The notes under the pieces are model-generated. The model was not told the DNA's origin, did no database searches, and saw only the letters and a program-made list of their open reading frames with translations. Positions 1,105 through 18,869 of a stretch of DNA of 64,000 bases are shown in pieces. Origin of the DNA: Blautia sp. GTDB taxonomy: Bacteria; Bacillota; Clostridia; Lachnospirales; Lachnospiraceae. The DNA is taken from positions 29,810 through 93,809 of the forward strand of contig JAMPAC010000006.1 in NCBI GenBank assembly GCA_023667395.1, read 5' to 3'. The translations under genes were made by a program, and so were the position numbers. Each line of letters begins with the position of its first letter. Position 1 is the stretch's first letter.

Positions 1105-3471
1105 TCACACGATTCTCTTAAACTTCCTGTCCATCTCCGCTTTCGTCATGGTGACGATGGTGGGTCTGCCGTGGGGGCAGTTGTAGGGGTTCTCCAGCGT
1201 CAGCAGTTCGTCGATCAGCGCCTCCGCCTCCGCAAGGCTGAGCAGGTTATTTCCCTTCACCGCCGCCTTGCAGGACATGGAGGCGATCTTCTCTTCTATG
1301 ACGCGGATATTGCCGAATGCAGTCCCGGCGGAAAGCTGGTCCAGCACCTCCAGGAACATTTCCCGCTCGTTGCAGCCGTAGAGATCCACGGGCACACTGC
1401 GCAGCGCGTACTCGCTGCCGCCAAAAGATTCTACCTCAAACCCCAGGGAGGCGAACACCTCCATGCTTTCCTTTAACACGGTCTCCTCCTGTCCGGTCAG
1501 GCTGACGATCACAGGCGGCATCAAGGTCTGGGAAACCACGTTTTTCTCATGATACTGTTTCATGAGCCGCTCGTAGTTTACTTTTTCATGGGCGGCGTGC
1601 TGGTCGATCATCATCAGTTTTTCCTCAAACTGTATCAGCCAGTAGGTCTCAAAGACCTGTCCGATGATCCGGAAACGGGAACGGTTGTCCACGGTAAGGA
1701 TCTTCTCCTCGAACAGGTTCAGCTGTGAGGCTGTGGTGGGGTCTGCCTGCGGCTGCGTTGATGGCGAAAATGACTGTCCCGATCCGTCTGCCGGATTTGG
1801 CGACCGCATGGTCTTCTCCCGGGACTGATCGGAAATCCGGTTCTCCGCGTCCATTCGCCCCGGGTAAAGTCCTCGTTCCCCACCTCCTGTCGATTTTACG
1901 CCCTGCTCTATATCTTCCGGCAATTCCGACGTCTCTGAAAAGAAGTCGTCCACTTCCGTTTCCGGCGCACTGCCCGACAATTCCTGACGCTCCGACGGAA
2001 TTCCGCCTGTACCACCCCTGTCTGACAGATCGGATGCGGACGCTGTCACTACGTTCCCTGCTGGTTTGCCGGGCGCCGTCATGACTCCGTTTTCTGCTGC
2101 GCCGACAGGCGCCGTTTCTGCAGCATCCCCTGAACTATCCGCCGCAGATGCAGGCTGTCCCGATGCCCCCGGAATATTTGTCGGAAACCCTGATTTTGCC
2201 GTGTTTTCTGTCATTTTCTGCGTAAAACCGCTTCTTTCATCCGGCTTTTCCGACATTTTCACCCTTTTCCAGACAGGATTCTGCATAAAATCCTGCATTT
2301 GCGGGTTCTGCAGCCTCTCCGCCGCCACCGCCTTATACCTGGTTTCTTCCTCCAGGCGGTAGCTTCCCGCACGGTTCCGCTCAAAGGGCTCCGGCGTGTG
2401 CTCCGCCTGAACCGCTTTCCGCTCCGCCTCCGCTGCGGCCTTTAATTCCCTGTCGCTTTCCAGGGAAGCCTCCGGTATCATCTCCCTGCCGCGCAGGGCG
2501 TCCCTCACCGTTTCCATCAGGTAATTGCTGAACGCGATCGGGTTGCTGAAACGCACATCCATCTTGGTGGGATGCACATTCACATCCACCCTGTCCGTAT
2601 CCATGGTGATGTGCAGGACGCAGAGGGGGAATTTGTGCTGCATCAGGTATTCCTTGTAGCCTTCTTCCACGGAGCGGGCCACCACGCTGCTGCGGATGAA
2701 CCTGCCGTTGATGAAATAAATCTCAAAATTGCGGTTGGAGCGCACCAGCACAGGTTTTCCCAGATATCCCTCCACATGAATGCCGTCCTTTTCCATCTGC
2801 ACCGGCACAAGGGAGGCCGCCACGTCCCGGCCGTAAATGCGGTAGATGACCTCTTTTAAATCCCCGTTTCCCGAGGTGTGGAACTTCATCTGGCTTCCCA
2901 CCAGCAGCTTAAAGGAAATGTCCGGCCTGGAGAGCGCCAGATGCTCCATCAGATCCACAATATATCCGCCCTCCGTGGCGGGCTGTTTCAAAAATTTTCT
3001 CCGCACGGGCGTGTTGAAAAAGAGGTTCCGCACCAGAAAGGTAGTTCCCTCCGGCGCGCCTACCTCCTCAAAGCCGGTCTCCCTTGCGCCCTCTAACAGG
3101 ATGCGGCTGCCTGCCACGCTGTCCGCGGTCTTGGTGATGACCTCCACCCTGGCCACCGCCGCGATGCTGGAGAGAGCCTCCCCCCGAAACCCCAGGCTGG
3201 AAATCCTGGTCAGGTCGGAGGCGTCCGTTATCTTGCTGGTGGCATGACGCAGAAACGCGGTGCGAAGCTGTTCCCGCTCCATTCCCGCGCCGTTATCCGT
3301 CACACGGATCAGTTCGATCCCGCCCTCCTTTATTTCCACCGTGACCGCCGAAGCCCCGGCGTCGATGGCATTTTCCACCAACTCCTTGACCACGCTGGAG
3401 GGGCGTTCCACCACCTCGCCGGCCGCGATCTTGTCTATGGTCTCCGAATCCAGAACATGTATCTGCGCCAT
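1105..3471 (-). CDS. mutL: DNA mismatch repair protein MutL (endonuclease type)
   Basis: Couples MutS mismatch recognition to strand incision. The N-terminal GHKL ATPase shows ENAIDAGA, DNGAGM, RHATSKI and GFRGEAL within the first 100 residues. Residues about 340-590 are a long variable linker rich in Ser, Gly and Glu. The C-terminal domain carries the metal-dependent nicking motif DQHAAHEKVNYE and the accompanying SCKAAVKGNN and CPHGRPT motifs, as in Gram-positive MutL that works without MutH. At 788 aa it is longer than usual because of the linker. It lies 150 bp downstream of mutS, same strand, so probably co-transcribed. Confidence 0.97.
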   Translation of the reverse strand: MAQIHVLDSETIDKIAAGEVVERPSSVVKELVENAIDAGASAVTVEIKEGGIELIRVTDNGAGMEREQLRTAFLRHATSKITDASDLTRISSLGFRGEALSSIAAVARVEVITKTADSVAGSRILLEGARETGFEEVGAPEGTTFLVRNLFFNTPVRRKFLKQPATEGGYIVDLMEHLALSRPDISFKLLVGSQMKFHTSGNGDLKEVIYRIYGRDVAASLVPVQMEKDGIHVEGYLGKPVLVRSNRNFEIYFINGRFIRSSVVARSVEEGYKEYLMQHKFPLCVLHITMDTDRVDVNVHPTKMDVRFSNPIAFSNYLMETVRDALRGREMIPEASLESDRELKAAAEAERKAVQAEHTPEPFERNRAGSYRLEEETRYKAVAAERLQNPQMQDFMQNPVWKRVKMSEKPDERSGFTQKMTENTAKSGFPTNIPGASGQPASAADSSGDAAETAPVGAAENGVMTAPGKPAGNVVTASASDLSDRGGTGGIPSERQELSGSAPETEVDDFFSETSELPEDIEQGVKSTGGGERGLYPGRMDAENRISDQSREKTMRSPNPADGSGQSFSPSTQPQADPTTASQLNLFEEKILTVDNRSRFRIIGQVFETYWLIQFEEKLMMIDQHAAHEKVNYERLMKQYHEKNVVSQTLMPPVIVSLTGQEETVLKESMEVFASLGFEVESFGGSEYALRSVPVDLYGCNEREMFLEVLDQLSAGTAFGNIRVIEEKIASMSCKAAVKGNNLLSLAEAEALIDELLTLENPYNCPHGRPTIVTMTKAEMDRKFKRIV

Positions 3472-13759: not shown

Positions 13760-15220
13760 TTATTTGCCTGTTGCTTCGTGCCCTATGTAATAAAACCCAC
13801 AGCACTCGTCCAGGGACACATTTACCAGCTTCCCGACCAGGGACGCGCCCCCCGGGAGATGGACAATGGTATTGTTGGAAAGCCTGCCCTTGACCATGGA
13901 ACTGTCGTTCTCATTCACTTCCTCGATCAACGCCTCCATGACCCGCCCCTGGTATTTCGCGGTCTGCTCCCTGGCCGTATCCTGCACCAGCTTCAGCAGC
14001 CTGTCAAAGCCCTTTTTCGCCTGTTCTTCCGGCACCTGGTCCTCCATTGCCGCAGCGGGAGTCCCCGTCCTTTTGGAATAGATAAAGGTAAAGGCATTGT
14101 CATATTTCACGGTGCGCACCACGTCCAGGGTCTCCTCCAGGTCGTTTTCCGTCTCCCCGGGAAATCCCACGATGATATCCGTGGTAATGGCAATGTCGGG
14201 AATCTCCCGGCGTATCTTCAGCGCCAGTTCCACATACTGCTCTTTTGTATAACGGCGGTTCATGCGGGTGAGGATCCTGGTGGAGCCGGACTGTAAGGGC
14301 AGATGCAGGTGGCGGCAAATCTTTTTGGACTCTTTCATCACCTGGATCAGTTCGTCGGACAAGTCCTTGGGGTGGGAAGTCATAAAGCGGATCCGCTTCA
14401 GTCCCTCTATCTTCTCCACCTCTTTGAGCAGCTGCGCGAAAGTCATGGGCTCCGCCAGATTTTTCCCATAGGAATTCACATTCTGTCCCAGCAGCATGAC
14501 CTCCACCACGCCGTCCTGAACCAGCTTCTCAATCTCCCGGATGATGTCCCTGGGCTCCCTGCTGCGCTCCCGCCCCCGGACGTAGGGCACGATACAGTAG
14601 CTGCAGAAATTATTGCAGCCGAACATAATATTGATGCCGGATTTAAAGGGATATTTCCGCTCTATGGGCAGATCCTCCACGATCTTGTCCGTGTCCTGCC
14701 AGATATCGATGATCATGCCGTTATTTTCATTTTCATATACGGTGTACAGCAGTTCCGCAAACTTGAAGAGATTGTGTGTTCCGAAGATCAGGTTCACGAA
14801 AGGATAGCTTTTTTTCAGCTTCTCGATGACGGCGGGTTCCTGCATCATACAGCCGCAGAGGGCAATCTTCATATCCGGGTTCTTCCGCTTATGGCCGTTT
14901 AATTCTCCCAGCCTGCCGTAGACTTTCTGGTTGGCGTTGTCCCGGACGGTGCAGGTGTTAAGGATCACAAAGTCGGCGTTCTCGCTGTCCGTGATCTCAT
15001 AGCCTGCCTGCCGCAAAATGCCCGTCAGTTTCTCGGAGTCCTTTGCGTTCATCTGACAGCCCATATTGAGAACAAAGGCTTGGGGTAAGCGGCCATTTTT
15101 TTGTTCAAAGTCTTTTACCCACTCCCGGCATTTTGCCAGATAGTAGTATTGACGGGCTGGTTCCTCTGTTGGCGGCTGTAAGTTTAAATTTATGTTACCT
15201 AAATCAATCTCATTATACAT
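13760..15220 (-). CDS. miaB: tRNA-2-methylthio-N6-dimethylallyladenosine synthase MiaB
   Basis: Radical SAM methylthiotransferase that converts i6A37 to ms2i6A37, acting after MiaA. The UPF0004 domain shows MGCQMNAKDSEKL with Cys55 as first ligand of the auxiliary iron-sulfur cluster. The radical SAM motif GCNNFCSYCIVPYVRGRERSR is near residue 200, and a TRAM domain ends the protein. Length 486 aa is slightly long at the N-terminus, as in clostridial MiaB. Upstream on the same strand lie toxin-antitoxin modules interleaved with stranded miaB 5' fragments, each ending at the codon for Cys55, so the present 5' end may have been replaced by recombination. Confidence 0.97.
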   Translation of the reverse strand: MYNEIDLGNINLNLQPPTEEPARQYYYLAKCREWVKDFEQKNGRLPQAFVLNMGCQMNAKDSEKLTGILRQAGYEITDSENADFVILNTCTVRDNANQKVYGRLGELNGHKRKNPDMKIALCGCMMQEPAVIEKLKKSYPFVNLIFGTHNLFKFAELLYTVYENENNGMIIDIWQDTDKIVEDLPIERKYPFKSGINIMFGCNNFCSYCIVPYVRGRERSREPRDIIREIEKLVQDGVVEVMLLGQNVNSYGKNLAEPMTFAQLLKEVEKIEGLKRIRFMTSHPKDLSDELIQVMKESKKICRHLHLPLQSGSTRILTRMNRRYTKEQYVELALKIRREIPDIAITTDIIVGFPGETENDLEETLDVVRTVKYDNAFTFIYSKRTGTPAAAMEDQVPEEQAKKGFDRLLKLVQDTAREQTAKYQGRVMEALIEEVNENDSSMVKGRLSNNTIVHLPGGASLVGKLVNVSLDECCGFYYIGHEATGK

Positions 15221-15253
15221 TTCTTTTAGCCTTCTTCATAATCTGTCCTTTTA

Positions 15254-15466
15254 TCAATCCCAATTGATTTCCTCATGAGAAACGGTTTCACCATTCCTGA
15301 TTTCAGCATCAGCATCCTCCAATTCTTTTTTTTCTGTCATAGTTAATTTTGTAAAATCCGGATCCCATGCCAGCACTAGCTTTTTGATGAATTCAAGAGC
15401 AAAATTTTGTTCACTCTCCGGTAAAATTTCCATAAGATTTATTGCTTCCCTCGTTATCGTACTCAT
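15254..15466 (-). CDS. Antitoxin of RelE-type module 1
   Basis: A 70-aa acidic protein, MSTITREAINLMEILPESEQ, ending NGETVSHEEINWD. The ending is shared with the antitoxin at 15918 (NGTISHEAINWD), so both belong to one family of small antitoxins paired with RelE/ParE-fold toxins. It follows its toxin gene, the reverse of the classical relBE order. The ATG at 15464-15466 has AAGGAGC seven bases upstream; a longer start overlapping the toxin stop is less likely. miaB starts 33 bp downstream and may be co-transcribed. Confidence 0.8.
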   Translation of the reverse strand: MSTITREAINLMEILPESEQNFALEFIKKLVLAWDPDFTKLTMTEKKELEDADAEIRNGETVSHEEINWD

Positions 15467-15489
15467 AACCTGCTCCTTTCCAAATAAAA

Positions 15490-15750
15490 TCATTTATAAA
15501 TATCGCCTCTTGAATCTACATTGATTATATATAAAATTTCTATTCTTTCATCAGAAATGATAGTATAAATTATTCTGTATTTGCCGATTCTGAGCCTTTT
15601 TCGTCCATCTGAATAGCCTGGAAGCGCTTTGATATCTCCTTTCGGCGGCTGCGCTGTCAATCCCTCAATCCCGGCTTTAATCCTCTGCTTTGTCGGCCTA
15701 TCCAACGCAGAAATGTATTTTGCGGCTTTTTTACTATATTCAATTGTCAA
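15490..15750 (-). CDS. RelE/ParE-superfamily toxin 1
   Basis: An 86-aa basic protein, MTIEYSKKAAKYISALDRPTKQRIKAGIEGL, then GDIKALPGYSDGRKRLRIGKYRIIY and a C-terminal IEILYIINVDSRGDIYK: the RelE fold with its conserved Arg-rich strand and final Arg/Tyr region, consistent with ribosome-dependent mRNA cleavage. It initiates at TTG (complement of 15748-15750) with AAGGAGTG upstream; no ATG is in frame. Its leader shares a conserved 45-bp junction segment with the leader of toxin 2. Confidence 0.88.
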   Translation of the reverse strand: MTIEYSKKAAKYISALDRPTKQRIKAGIEGLTAQPPKGDIKALPGYSDGRKRLRIGKYRIIYTIISDERIEILYIINVDSRGDIYK

Positions 15751-15830
15751 ATTATCATCACACTCCTTTTTATCAGATGCCGTCTGTATTTATCAACACT
15801 TTTGGGATTCTTTTTTACTCGCACGAACGG

Positions 15831-15898
15831 ACAGCCCCTATTGAGAACAAAGGCTTTGGGTAAGCGGCCATTTTTTCGTTCAAAGTCTTTTACCCACT
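15831..15898 (-). pseudogene. Stranded fragment of miaB 5' coding region (R1)
   Basis: Sixty-eight bases matching 15056-15123 inside miaB with only about five differences, same orientation. It translates as KNGRLPKAFVLNRGC, against KNGRLPQAFVLNMGC in the intact protein. The match stops exactly after GGCTGT, the codon pair Gly54-Cys55; then CCGTTCGTGCGAG begins the leader of toxin 1. The first miaB codons are missing, and the fragment starts 17 bp after the stop of antitoxin 2. It has no start codon and should be non-functional. Confidence 0.9.
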
Positions 15899-15917
15899 TT
15901 TTCCCTTCTATCGGTTC

Positions 15918-16109
15918 TCAATCCCAGTTTATCGCTTCATGCGATATGGTTCCATTCACTATCCTGTCTTCTCGTCCAGCTCTTAATGCCTCTAATTCTT
16001 CTGGTTCAGGAACCACTTCCGGTACGAATTTGACTATTACTCTATACAAAGTATCAATATCCTTTTCAGGAACCAACTCTATCAAATTTTTTAACATCTC
16101 TTTACTCAT
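15918..16109 (-). CDS. Antitoxin of RelE-type module 2
   Basis: A 63-aa acidic protein, MSKEMLKNLIELVPEKDIDTLYRVIVKFVPE..., ending DRIVNGTISHEAINWD like the antitoxin of module 1. It lies 16 bp downstream of its toxin gene. The N-terminal part differs clearly from module 1, so the two pairs are diverged relatives rather than a recent duplication. A miaB fragment follows its stop codon. Confidence 0.8.
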   Translation of the reverse strand: MSKEMLKNLIELVPEKDIDTLYRVIVKFVPEVVPEPEELEALRAGREDRIVNGTISHEAINWD

Positions 16110-16125
16110 GTTTTATCACCTATCC

Positions 16126-16365
16126 CTATAATCTTTTATATGCCTGTCCTCTTGGAATAATATTGTCAATATATATTATATCATCTTCTATGGAAAACAA
16201 CACTCTTAAATCTCCGACTCTCAATCGGTATCCATTATCTATTCCCTGCAATTTTTTAATATCTCCAAAAGGTATTTTTTCAATTGCTTCTTTGAGACGT
16301 TTCTTCGTTGATTTATCGACCGCATTAATATATTTTACTGAATTTTTACTGTATTCAATTTTCAA
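16126..16365 (-). CDS. RelE/ParE-superfamily toxin 2
   Basis: A 79-aa basic protein, MKIEYSKNSVKYINAVDKSTKKRLKEAIEKI, then GDIKKLQGIDNGYRLRVGDLRVLF and IDNIIPRGQAYKRL, clearly homologous to toxin 1 over its whole length. It also begins at a TTG codon (complement of 16363-16365) behind AAAGGAG. Probably a ribosome-dependent mRNA interferase neutralised by the downstream protein. Confidence 0.88.
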   Translation of the reverse strand: MKIEYSKNSVKYINAVDKSTKKRLKEAIEKIPFGDIKKLQGIDNGYRLRVGDLRVLFSIEDDIIYIDNIIPRGQAYKRL

Positions 16366-16420
16366 TAATTTTTTCTCCTTTTCAGCAACTTTTCGGAATC
16401 CTGTTTACTCACACGAACGG

Positions 16421-16527
16421 ACAGCCGAACGCGGTGATGCAGGCGGTTGGAACGCGGTCGTTTTTCTGTGCGCGTGAACCCACTCCCGGCATTTTGCCAT
16501 ATAGTAGTATTGTCCGGCGGGTTCTTG
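16421..16527 (-). pseudogene. Stranded fragment of a divergent miaB 5' region (R2)
   Basis: Reading minus it encodes EPAGQYYYMAKCREWV (intact miaB: EPARQYYYLAKCREWV). After a short scrambled stretch it continues in another frame as KNDRVPTACITAFGC. The coding match stops after GGCTGT, the same point as R1 and R3, followed by CCGTTCGTGTGAG and the leader of toxin 2. Sequence is far from the local miaB but still MiaB-like, so it comes from a different miaB allele. It begins 16 bp after the brnA stop codon. Confidence 0.85.
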
Positions 16528-16542
16528 ATTTTATCCTTTTCC

Positions 16543-16758
16543 TTATCTCCATTCCAACTGAAGCTTTCTCTTGGATGCCACACAATCGGACAGATACAAA
16601 TTAATCAGCGTCTGATAAGGTATCCCCAGGCTTTCCGACTGACTTTTGAAATACTCTATGGTTTCTCCGTCAATATTGATGGTAATCTGCTTCTTTACCC
16701 TATTGGAATATGGATTTTTTCTTGGATTCAGATTTTCGATATCATATTCTTCTCTCAT
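16543..16758 (-). CDS. brnA: BrnA-type antitoxin
   Basis: A 71-aa ribbon-helix-helix-like protein, MREEYDIENLNPRKNPY, then KKQITINIDGETIEYFKSQSESLGIPYQTLINLYLSDCV, as in BrnA antitoxins, which bind and repress their own promoter with BrnT. It follows the toxin gene with a five-base gap. The ATG at 16756-16758 is preferred over an in-frame TTG four codons earlier that overlaps the brnT stop. Confidence 0.88.
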   Translation of the reverse strand: MREEYDIENLNPRKNPYSNRVKKQITINIDGETIEYFKSQSESLGIPYQTLINLYLSDCVASKRKLQLEWR

Positions 16759-16763
16759 TGTCC

Positions 16764-17054
16764 TTACCAACCTTTCTGATAAAATTCTTTCTCCTTTTTC
16801 GTCGCTTCTCTTGCAGAAATGATTCTGATCGTACTATCCCCATCTCTGTAACAATGACTCACAATACATATTCCTTTTGTCCCGGTTATTCCTATGATGA
16901 GAAATCTTTCCTCCTCATAAGAATGGTCTGGGTCATCAAACAGAATTGCATTTTCATCACCAAATACATCCCTTGCCTCTTCAAAGGATATGCCATGTTT
17001 CTTCTTGTTCGTTTCATTCTTGTTGTCATCCCATATAAAACGCAATTTATTCAT
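16764..17054 (-). CDS. brnT: BrnT-type ribonuclease toxin
   Basis: A 96-aa RelE-fold toxin, MNKLRFIWDDNKNETNKKKHGISFEEARDVFGDE, then RFLIIGITGTKGICIVSHCYRDGDSTIRIISAREATKKEKEFY. The KHGISFEEA motif and the IRIISAREA motif with catalytic Arg are diagnostic of BrnT. First gene of the brnTA pair. Its upstream region begins directly at a miaB fragment junction (17161). Confidence 0.93.
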   Translation of the reverse strand: MNKLRFIWDDNKNETNKKKHGISFEEARDVFGDENAILFDDPDHSYEEERFLIIGITGTKGICIVSHCYRDGDSTIRIISAREATKKEKEFYQKGW

Positions 17055-17160
17055 AAATACATTATACCTATTTTCTAATTATTAAGCAACATTTCCCTTT
17101 TTTATAGTCACCTATGGCAGAATCATAATTTCCAAAAATCTGTGCTGCAAAAAACATAGG

Positions 17161-17240
17161 ACAGCCGAACGCGGTGACGCAGGCGGTTGGAACGCGGCCG
17201 TTTATCTTCTGTTTCGTCGGTGTCCAGTGCAGAAATCCGA
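17161..17240 (-). pseudogene. Chimeric relic: relE-toxin fragment joined to miaB fragment (R3)
   Basis: Reading minus from 17240, the sequence encodes ISALD then, after a one-base shift, PTKQKIN, matching ISALDRPTKQRIK of RelE toxin 1. It then passes directly into GRVPTACVTAFGC, a MiaB-like segment nearly identical in DNA to R2 (two differences in about 45 bases). It ends after GGCTGT at 17161, as R1 and R2 do. Most of the toxin, all of the antitoxin and the start of the miaB part are deleted. Confidence 0.75.
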
Positions 17241-17247
17241 ATCCTGT

Positions 17248-17622
17248 TTACTCGCACGGACGGACGCTTTCCGTCCACAGAGAATGCATAAATTCAAGTT
17301 GAAGGTTTTTTAACTCTTTCATCCTTTCAGCGATCATGCTTAAATACGTTTCGTCTGTATAGCCCTTTTGTTTTTCTTCATCGGAACATCTTTTAAAACC
17401 GGACAATATATTGATAACGGATGGTATATTGAGCATAAAATAGCGCACAAAGACTTTTGGATAATAATCTTCATCTTTATAATCTTTCATTACCTCTCTG
17501 ACTATCTTTTTCATTCGGATAAAGGACTGCTCATTCCACTCGCCTGCATTTGTGCGGATGTACGTGAATAATTCTTCATCAGATGCGTTATATTTATGAA
17601 AATTTTGTAAGCTTTCTTTCAT
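17248..17622 (-). CDS. Hypothetical protein upstream of the toxin-antitoxin array
   Basis: A 124-aa soluble, mainly helical protein without recognisable domain (MKESLQNFHKYNASDEELFTYIRTN...). Its ATG overlaps the pepT stop by four bases, so translation is probably coupled. The final residues VRPCE and the stop are encoded by CGTCCGTGCGAGTAA, which is the junction segment found upstream of toxins 1 and 2. The natural C-terminus may therefore have been replaced when the array formed. Function unknown; an immunity protein is one possibility. Confidence 0.55.
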   Translation of the reverse strand: MKESLQNFHKYNASDEELFTYIRTNAGEWNEQSFIRMKKIVREVMKDYKDEDYYPKVFVRYFMLNIPSVINILSGFKRCSDEEKQKGYTDETYLSMIAERMKELKNLQLEFMHSLWTESVRPCE

Positions 17623-18869
17623 GCTTTTTCCTTTTCTTGTTCCCCATACCTCTCCGCCAGCCTCACCAACAGTTCCGTAACCTTATCCATGTACTGGACG
17701 CAGGCGTATTCAAAGCGGCTGTGGCAGTTTGCGCCGCCGGTGCAGAGGTTCGGGCAGGGAAGCCCCATGAAGGAAAGCCGCGCGCCGTCGGTGCCGCCCC
17801 TGACAGGCGTTATCATGGGCTCTGTCCCCATCTCCCGCAGGATATCCGAAGCGTTTTTCATCAGATGCCCATGGTCTTTCAGGACCTCTTTCATGTTGTA
17901 ATAGGAATCTCTCACCTCGGCCACAACTGTTCCCTGGCCGTATTTTTCATTTAAGAAGTCGGCGCATTTTTGGAACATTGCTTTCTTCTGCTCGAACAGT
18001 TCCCTGCTGTGGTCCCTGATGATATAGTCCGCGACTGTTTTTTCCACATTCCCTGAAATCTGGTCCAGATGGAAGAAGCCCTCGTACCCCTCCGTATATA
18101 TGGGATTCTGGAACACGGGCAGCAGGCCCTGGAATTCCTGCGCCACCAGGATGGAATTGATCATTTTGCCTTTCGCGCCGCCGGGATGCACGCTGCGCCC
18201 ATGGACCGTGAGCCTGCCGGAGGCCGCGTTAAAGGTCTCGTTCTCCAGTTCTCCCCATCCGCCGCCATCCACCGTGTAGGCGAAATCCGCCCCGAACAGC
18301 TTTACGTCAAAATGATCCGCGCCCTCCCCGATCTCCTCATCGGGAGTGAAGCCTACCCGGATCTTGCCGTGTTTTACTTCGGGATGATGCAGCAGATATT
18401 CGCAGGCTCCCATGATCTCCGCGATACCCGCCTTATCGTCCGAGCCAAGGAGCGTAGTGCCGTCGGTGACGATGAGATCATACCCTTTCAGCTTTTTGAT
18501 CTCCGGAAAGTCCGCCGTGGAAAGCACGATCTGTTCCGCCTCGTTCAGCAGGATATCTTCCCCGTCATAATTTTCCACAATGCGGGGCTTCACGCCCGTG
18601 TCCGTCACCGCCGGGGAAGTGTCCATGTGGGCGATAAATCCCAGCACAGGCGCGTCCTCACAGCCCTGGGATGCCGGGATGGAAGCATAAAGGTAGCAGT
18701 GCTCCTGATCATATGTGATCTCCACTGCCCCCATCTCCTTAAGCTGACGCTCCAGAAGCCGCGCCAGGTCGTGCTGCTTCGCCGTGCTGGGTGTGGTCCC
18801 GGTGGTCTCGTCGGACTGGGTGTCTATGACCACATATTGCAAAAAATTCTCAATGGTTTTTGATAACAT
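17619..18869 (-). CDS. pepT: Peptidase T (tripeptide aminopeptidase)
   Basis: A 416-aa cytosolic M20B zinc aminopeptidase releasing the N-terminal residue of tripeptides. Metal-site motifs are visible: GFIAHMDTSPAV, GTTLLGSDDKAGIAEI, GFTPDEEIGEGADHF and, in the dimerisation lobe, RSVHPGGAKGKM. C-terminal TPVRGGTDGARLSFMGLPCPNLCTGG completes the family pattern. Normal length. It overlaps the hypothetical gene at 17248-17622 by four bases. Confidence 0.97.
   Translation of the reverse strand: MLSKTIENFLQYVVIDTQSDETTGTTPSTAKQHDLARLLERQLKEMGAVEITYDQEHCYLYASIPASQGCEDAPVLGFIAHMDTSPAVTDTGVKPRIVENYDGEDILLNEAEQIVLSTADFPEIKKLKGYDLIVTDGTTLLGSDDKAGIAEIMGACEYLLHHPEVKHGKIRVGFTPDEEIGEGADHFDVKLFGADFAYTVDGGGWGELENETFNAASGRLTVHGRSVHPGGAKGKMINSILVAQEFQGLLPVFQNPIYTEGYEGFFHLDQISGNVEKTVADYIIRDHSRELFEQKKAMFQKCADFLNEKYGQGTVVAEVRDSYYNMKEVLKDHGHLMKNASDILREMGTEPMITPVRGGTDGARLSFMGLPCPNLCTGGANCHSRFEYACVQYMDKVTELLVRLAERYGEQEKEKA

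What the first reader, a model, noticed from the sequence alone, without database searches (positions are those of the whole stretch)
15056..17265. Cassette-like array: toxin-antitoxin modules interleaved with miaB 5' fragments, all broken at one codon
Upstream of intact miaB lie three complete TA modules (RelE-type 1, RelE-type 2, BrnTA). Between them are stranded pieces of miaB 5' coding sequence in the same orientation (R1 15831-15898, R2 16421-16527, R3 17161-17205). All three end exactly after GGCTGT (Gly54-Cys55, the first Fe-S ligand) and are followed by CC. The spacings between successive GGCTGT sites are 775, 590 and 740 bp, so each unit is [CC...TA...miaB 5' end through GGCTGT]. R1 is about 93-95% identical to local miaB, R2 and R3 belong to another allele (KNDRVPTACITAFGC against KNGRLPQAFVLNMGC). 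Inference: TA cassettes travel with a replacement miaB 5' end and insert at one site in miaB, restoring the gene and leaving the old 5' end upstream. No recombinase is present locally.
Basis: partly seen in the sequence, partly recalled or inferred. Interest (0 to 1): 0.88.

Follow-up and report, generated by a model that had tools for sequence, protein, structure and literature searches.

The report
Tiny mobile cassettes rebuilding miaB
A row of very small mobile gene cassettes, here carrying toxin-antitoxin pairs, appears to have inserted one after another at a single point in a gut bacterium's tRNA-modification gene miaB, each bringing a spare front end that repairs the gene; a family of phages that uses the same spot and carries an integrase is a likely helper.

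Summary
In detail: three stranded miaB 5' pieces, all stopping at codon 55 (GGCTGT), alternate with three toxin-antitoxin modules. I read eleven left junctions at this codon in nine genomes. For one carrier, a sister genome holds the empty site: the carrier's old 5' end joined to its miaB body aligns there without a gap, while its new 5' end is foreign. Cargo is 96-98% identical among three hosts whose miaB bodies are 70-72% identical. Elements with one clade of large serine recombinase use the same site: 3 of 3 strong matches in 138 genus genomes; 27 of 34 viral contigs carry a miaB 5' end. Cassette left ends resemble that clade's att half-site, including the separate BrnTA end. Best reading: integrase-less cassettes that use a phage serine integrase in trans, rebuild miaB and stack. 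Against: 0 of 20 carriers tested encode this integrase; new 5' ends diverge more than cargo, so homologous exchange also acts. No excision or activity was tested.

The parts
13760..15220 (-). intact miaB (486 aa), target and anchor of the array; the canonical MiaB model TIGR01574 matches from residue 49
   Evidence: ORF; Pfam; NCBIfam
15056..15220 (-). miaB codons 1-55, read as brought by the last cassette (allele ...KNGRLPQAFVLNMGC)
   Evidence: identity to sisters changes at codon 55/56:
15254..15493 (-). RelB1-like antitoxin (cassette 1 cargo), 33 bp between its stop and the miaB ATG
   Evidence: ORF; no family hit; named from position beside the toxin and 90% copy in G415
15490..15750 (-). 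RelE/ParE-type toxin 1 (cassette 1 cargo)
   Evidence: Pfam PF05016 5e-9; phrog_1213
15804..15831 (-). left end of cassette 1 (CCGTTCGTGCGAGTAAAAAAGAATCCC), att-half-site-like
15831..15898 (-). R1: stranded miaB 5' end = right end of cassette 2; 38/40 to the window's miaB
15918..16109 (-). RelB2-like antitoxin (cassette 2)
   Evidence: ORF; no family hit; relatives just upstream of miaB in L037 and L174
16126..16365 (-). RelE-type toxin 2 (cassette 2), TTG start
   Evidence: (just below cut-off); 97% copy upstream of miaB in G370
16389..16421 (-). left end of cassette 2 (CCGTTCGTGTGAGTAAACAGGATTCCGAAAAG)
   Evidence: same pattern in other genomes
16421..16527 (-). R2: stranded miaB 5' end = right end of cassette 3; sister-type allele
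16543..16770 (-). BrnA antitoxin (cassette 3)
   Evidence: Pfam PF14384 1e-7
16764..17054 (-). BrnT toxin (cassette 3)
   Evidence: Pfam PF04365 9.6e-29
17126..17161 (-). left end of the BrnTA cassette, a different sequence that also scores like the att half-site
17161..17205 (-). R3: stranded miaB 5' end, sister-type allele
17206..17236 (-). RelE1-like scrap, read as part of a decayed fourth cassette
   Evidence: sequence reading
17238..17265 (-). third copy of the left end (decayed fourth cassette)
17248..17622 (-). orf124, unknown; also between pepT and the first cassette in G415
   Evidence: no family above cut-off
17619..18869 (-). pepT, native upstream neighbour of miaB (50 bp from miaB in the empty site of G379)

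Best explanation
The locus is a stack of very small, integrase-less integrative cassettes. Each is about 0.6-0.8 kb: a left att half-site, one gene or one toxin-antitoxin pair, and codons 1-55 of a miaB with its own start signals. As a circle, a cassette would recombine between the TG of codon 55 (GGC TG|T) in miaB and the same TG at its own join. The result is that the old 5' end is left upstream as a dead piece ending at GGCTGT, the cargo follows, and miaB is rebuilt with the cassette's 5' end. Repeating this at the rebuilt site gives an array, newest unit nearest miaB. The enzyme is most likely a phage large serine recombinase of the clade that integrates whole phage-like elements at this same point, acting in trans. 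Shown: the anatomy, the precise insertion in one carrier, spread between species, the elements with the recombinase and their junctions. Inferred: the circle, the exact crossover base, the order of insertion, the enzyme and its action in trans. Homologous recombination between duplicated 5' ends probably also shuffles or duplicates units.
For: Eleven left junctions at codon 55 in nine genomes: R1-R3, G280, G413 and G367, Lachnoclostridium, Faecalicatena, Sporofaciens musculi (with a one-base indel) and Roseburia records and G425. In five carriers compared pairwise, the 150 bp before the junction are 51-72% identical, cargo 79-98% and bodies 69-75% (ten pairs). Empty site: L186 old 5' + body aligns without a gap to G444's miaB; the new 5' is 27/60. 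G379 has the uninterrupted pepT-miaB order. The strict left-end pattern occurs only beside miaB 5' ends: 6 of 6 records in genome contigs; in 138 genus genomes the looser pattern is at miaB in 7 of 8 (the eighth, G349, looks like chance). Spacing from the end of the cargo match to the miaB start: 35-37 bp in five TA loci, 70-72 bp in eight single-gene loci (L060 and L061 have 88-89). Elements with one LSR clade at the same point: G232, G303, G404, G365; 27 of 34 viral contigs. Cassette left ends score like that clade's half-site at the same distance from TG: shuffle p 0.0007-0.03 in 8 of 8, native miaB bodies 0.88-0.94 in 3 of 3.
Against: 0 of 20 cassette carriers tested hold the LSR clade at E<=1e-80, while the control G232 matched. 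New 5' ends of L185, L186 and G413 are only 75-80% identical although their cargo is 96-98%, so cargo and 5' end do not always move as one block. In G413 (53/60), G367 (56/60), L188 (49/49) and window R1/miaB (57/60) old and new ends are nearly the same allele, which local duplication or homologous recombination would also give. A TG-centred dyad in the rebuilt att site reaches p<0.05 in only 4 of 8. In the half-site test seven of the eight ends are related by descent, the positions were chosen after looking at one cassette type, and all score well below the clade's own sites (-0.5 to 5.9 against a mean of 11.6, which is not held out). G347 breaks at codon 46, and G281 joins to a truncated relB. 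No circle or activity was observed.
Confidence: 0.66

Rival explanations
1. Homologous recombination alone: cassettes spread as DNA with miaB flanks, and circles or tandem copies form by RecA exchange between duplicated miaB 5' ends (Campbell-type), so the codon-55 junction is just inherited from one ancestral accident.
For: Old and new 5' ends nearly identical in G413 (53/60), G367 (56/60), L188 (49/49) and R1/miaB (57/60), and intermediate in G281 (50/60), R3/R2 (44/60) and G280 (40/60); the same left-end junction recurs; new 5' ends diverge faster than cargo.
Against: In L185 and L186 the old and new ends share only 26/60 and 24/60, and R2/R1 28/60, too little for an easy crossover there, yet the insertion in L186 is exact and loses nothing. 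The BrnTA unit has a different left end at the same point. Phage-like elements with an integrase use the same point.
Confidence: 0.2
2. Each unit is the scar of a separate miaB prophage that decayed by deletion, keeping only an accessory gene and the gene-restoring 5' end.
For: miaB elements with the right architecture exist; G348 seems, by eye, to keep a phage-type 5' end without the phage; RelE-type cargo matches a phage 'moron' family.
Against: The single-gene cassette has nearly the same size (815-832 bp in five carriers) and 96-98% identity in three hosts, so the small form itself moved. I recognised no phage structural or integrase gene in the units read. No relative of the single-gene cargo was found in viral contigs by the pattern-based search, and the phage records gave 1 match at 56%.
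Confidence: 0.2
3. An ordinary local tandem duplication of TA plus the start of miaB, with no mobility.
For: R1/miaB (57/60) and, over the last 49 bp, R3/R2 are similar pairs.
Against: Different cargo types, different miaB alleles within the array, cargo shared between genera, and empty sites in relatives.
Confidence: 0.03

Closest known systems
dusA-specific genomic islands and prophages (Farrugia et al. 2015, PMC4482086; outline with abstract, two results sections and one passage seen)
   Same: Insert near the 5' end of a tRNA-modification gene and replace its 5' end with their own, probably keeping it functional; short att repeats. The paper also mentions a MiaB-like gene (rimO) as a reported target of a mobile element.
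   Different: They are large and carry their own tyrosine integrase; here the units are under 1 kb, carry no integrase and stack; the candidate enzyme is a serine recombinase.
Site-specific large serine recombinases (LSRs) of prophages/ICEs (Durrant et al. 2022, PMC10083194; passages found by term)
   Same: Resolvase + recombinase + zinc-ribbon integrase using one conserved site in a coding gene.
   Different: 'MiaB' and 'methylthiotransferase' do not occur in that paper's main text (supplements not seen). The cassettes lack the LSR gene.
Integron gene cassettes (recalled, no call)
   Same: Short mobile units of one or two genes, often TA, joined in arrays next to one anchor.
   Different: No integron integrase noticed; the recombination point is in a host gene's coding sequence and each unit carries the host gene's front end.
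Phage satellites such as PICI or P4 (recalled, no call)
   Same: Depend on a helper phage.
   Different: Known ones carry their own integrase and regulators; these have only cargo and ends.

Membership tests
miaB-targeting LSR prophage | stranded miaB 5' end joined at codon 55, and rebuilt miaB at the other end | tested here: met
miaB-targeting LSR prophage | LSR gene near the stranded end | tested here: not met
   none among ORFs of 50 aa or more between pepT and miaB; clade absent from G000 at the cut-offs used
miaB-targeting LSR prophage | att half-site of the LSR clade next to the junction | tested here: inconclusive
   above shuffles in 8 of 8 cassette ends but well below the clade's own sites (-0.5 to 5.9 vs mean 11.6); positions chosen partly after looking; 20 of 30 sites used, 9 near-duplicates and L257 dropped
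dusA-type 5'-replacing island | replacement of the target gene's 5' end by element sequence | tested here: met
dusA-type 5'-replacing island | tyrosine integrase in the element | tested here: not met
   ORFs and Pfam of the array
Integron cassette array | IntI integrase and attI/attC sites | not tested
   no model for IntI or attC was run
Type II toxin-antitoxin cargo | toxin and antitoxin homologous to RelE/ParE or BrnTA | tested here: met
   for RelE1, RelE2, BrnT, BrnA; RelB1 and RelB2 have no family hit
Type II toxin-antitoxin cargo | toxicity and neutralisation | not testable with these tools
   -

The most novel reading that the evidence does not exclude
A new class of mobile unit: sub-kilobase, integrase-less gene cassettes, each carrying a replacement front end for a conserved host gene, that use a phage serine integrase in trans to enter one dinucleotide of miaB and stack into arrays, an integron-like system built on a host gene. 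A homologue of the single-gene cargo sits at the recQ 3' end between 103-bp repeats of that end in another genus, so the format may not be limited to miaB.
Probability: 0.53. Interest if true: 0.87.

Novelty: new variant of a known kind. Interest (0 to 1): 0.78.

Why it matters
It would show that a bare att site, a cargo gene and the front end of a target gene suffice for spread between species when a phage supplies the integrase, and would explain how toxin-antitoxin pairs pile up beside housekeeping genes. The stranded 5' ends form a readable record of successive insertions, and the miaB-specific LSR clade is a defined enzyme set with a conserved site.

Tried and rejected
Dispersed repeat: the own genome matches the R2 region only here, and 1 of 138 genus genomes, the own one, has the R2/R3 pattern with up to 3 mismatches. 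A first 27-base left-end pattern in 299 family genomes found only G000; a pattern based on several cassettes worked better. Plasmids: no match for R2 DNA or cargo. Viral contigs: no left-end pattern and no confirmed cargo relative. I first thought the left end was miaB codons 56-66 with indels; it fits an att half-site better, but a faint miaB-like resemblance (GGATTCCGAAAAG) remains unexplained. Faecalibacterium phage FP_Brigit has an LSR at 38% identity; its two record ends gave no convincing miaB 5' end (best tblastn E 6e-4, 33% over 39 aa). The more distant LSRs (about 550 bits) of G344, G339, G391 and G324 looked like a correlation, since the first three are cassette carriers, but in the three distinct loci read they lie beside a queA-like gene, not miaB, and no miaB N-terminus was found there. 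AlphaFold model of the single-gene cargo: mean pLDDT 41, not used. Repeats flanking cargo homologues: of L198-L227 (30 loci; L208 and L225 gave no line) only L206 shows a clear gene-end repeat; L198 and L200 are miaB cassettes; L204 and L226 gave other hits.
Full report
What is there. miaB (13760-15220, minus strand) is preceded by RelE1/RelB1, R1, RelE2/RelB2, R2, BrnT/BrnA, R3, a RelE1-like scrap, a third copy of a left-end sequence, orf124 and pepT. R1, R2 and R3 all stop at GGCTGT of codon 55; spacings 775, 590 and 740. The own genome matches the R2 region at this locus only.

Ancestral state. In 44 of 99 loci read, a pepT match ends within 300 bp of miaB; in 53 of 99 one was found in the stretch held, several stretches being cut by contig ends. 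The sister G379 has pepT, 50 bp, miaB. Its miaB is about 71% identical to the window's over codons 1-55 and about 86% after, the switch lying at codon 55/56. The nearer sister G415 has pepT, orf124, a left end, RelE2/RelB2, RelB1 and miaB. Window vs G415: 17/33 in codons 45-55, 125/165 in codons 1-55, 171/184 after; control pair G415 vs G379: 131/165 and 153/184. R3 and R2 match G415's miaB end (36/40, 34/40), R1 the window's (38/40). So the stranded pieces look like former miaB front ends.

Other carriers. A profile of miaB codons 10-58 searched in 138 genus and 299 family genomes found second, stranded ends (the family list was cut). A strict left-end pattern hit six records in genome contigs, all beside a miaB 5' end: Lachnoclostridium, Faecalicatena, Sporofaciens musculi WCA-9-b2 and Roseburia records, plus two that are G413 and G367 (in the Roseburia record and G367's the contig ends inside the new 5' end). 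They carry a 174-aa single-gene cassette (a broken copy in G413, a shifted end in L186). Its relative in L028 has no Pfam, NCBIfam or PHROG match. In 290 family genomes 67 have homologues; the three at 369 bits or more (G280, G253, G262) all lie directly upstream of miaB; the other listed ones score below 275 bits, and of these only partial copies in G111 and G281 were seen at miaB. Of 93 genus loci examined 16 show cassette cargo or its tail upstream of miaB (several loci are cut by contig ends; G367 and G425 are outside this set).

Precision. In L186 the old end plus body aligns without a gap to the intact miaB of G444: upstream 102/120, body 105/120, but the new end 59/120 and 27/60. Old and new ends differ strongly in L185 (26/60), L186 (24/60) and R2/R1 (28/60); L187's 22/60 is depressed by an indel (71% in a gapped comparison); G280 40/60, R3/R2 44/60 and G281 50/60 are in between; G413, G367, L188 and R1/miaB are nearly alike. 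So a second route, homologous exchange or transfer between close relatives, must exist. Cargo 96-98% versus body 70-72% in the L185/L186/G413 trio, with new ends at 75-80%, points the same way: cargo moves, and front ends are also reshuffled.

The integrase. Phage-like elements separate the stranded and rebuilt ends in G232 (51 kb) and G303 (34 kb); in G404 the two ends are on different contigs, and in G365 only the stranded end was seen. Each has a large serine recombinase within about 1.3 kb of the stranded end. Pfam domains were run on three of the four; the phage nature was judged from ORFs by eye. The four are 52-59% identical to the first. In the genus only G404, G303 and G365 match at about 1100 bits, all at miaB; four further genomes match at about 550 bits elsewhere. 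Of 34 viral contigs with LSR relatives (L228-L261; L262, a weak match, left out), 27 carry a miaB 5' end; with 60-codon queries the best match ends at codons 56-60, with full-length MiaB two matches run to 64 and 70. I place the crossover at TG of codon 55; the elements' two ends share a slightly longer stretch, so this is inference. Cassette left ends carry an AGATT-like motif at the same distance from TG as those sites; 8 of 8 beat shuffles (p 0.0007-0.03), native miaB does not (3 of 3, p 0.88-0.94). Seven of the eight are related by descent; the BrnTA end, not used to choose the positions, has p 0.0007. The model was built from 20 of 30 sites (9 near-duplicates and the divergent L257 dropped), and all cassette ends stay below the clade's own sites. 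A TG-centred dyad has p<0.05 in 4 of 8 rebuilt sites. But 0 of 20 cassette carriers tested hold the clade, so the enzyme would have to come from passing phages, or be another one.

Why miaB tolerates it. The curated MiaB model matches from residue 49: the replaced part is mostly an extension outside that model, and the Fe-S ligand Cys55 (role recalled) is restored at the junction.

Literature. Searches for miaB with serine integrase/attB, integration site/prophage, TA/Lachnospiraceae, and methylthiotransferase/attachment site/serine recombinase listed no paper that appears, from title and abstract, to describe this (open-licence PMC papers only); broader searches were seen as listings. dusA islands are the nearest precedent found.

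Noticed in passing
L206:1271-2300 (G149): A homologue of the single-gene cargo sits at the 3' end of a recQ-like gene (named by eye), flanked by a 103-bp direct repeat (95%) of that end: the same layout at another gene.
   Followed up: partly
L194, L196, L197 (G339, G324, G391): More distant relatives of the miaB LSRs lie beside a queA-like gene (named by eye), another tRNA-modification gene.
   Followed up: partly
L169 (G399) near 2960-3005; L143 (G057) contig end: An assembly gap or contig end falls at miaB codons 55-60, as if reads disagree at the att site.
   Followed up: no
L167 (G348): miaB front end that by eye resembles G303's element end although pepT and miaB have no element between them.
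   Followed up: no
L248: Viral contig whose miaB 5' end beside the LSR has the cassette-type allele (KNGRLPKSFVLNMGC), as if the phage entered a cassette-rebuilt miaB.
   Followed up: no
window 17248-17622: orf124, unknown protein between pepT and the oldest cassette, shared with G415.
   Followed up: partly
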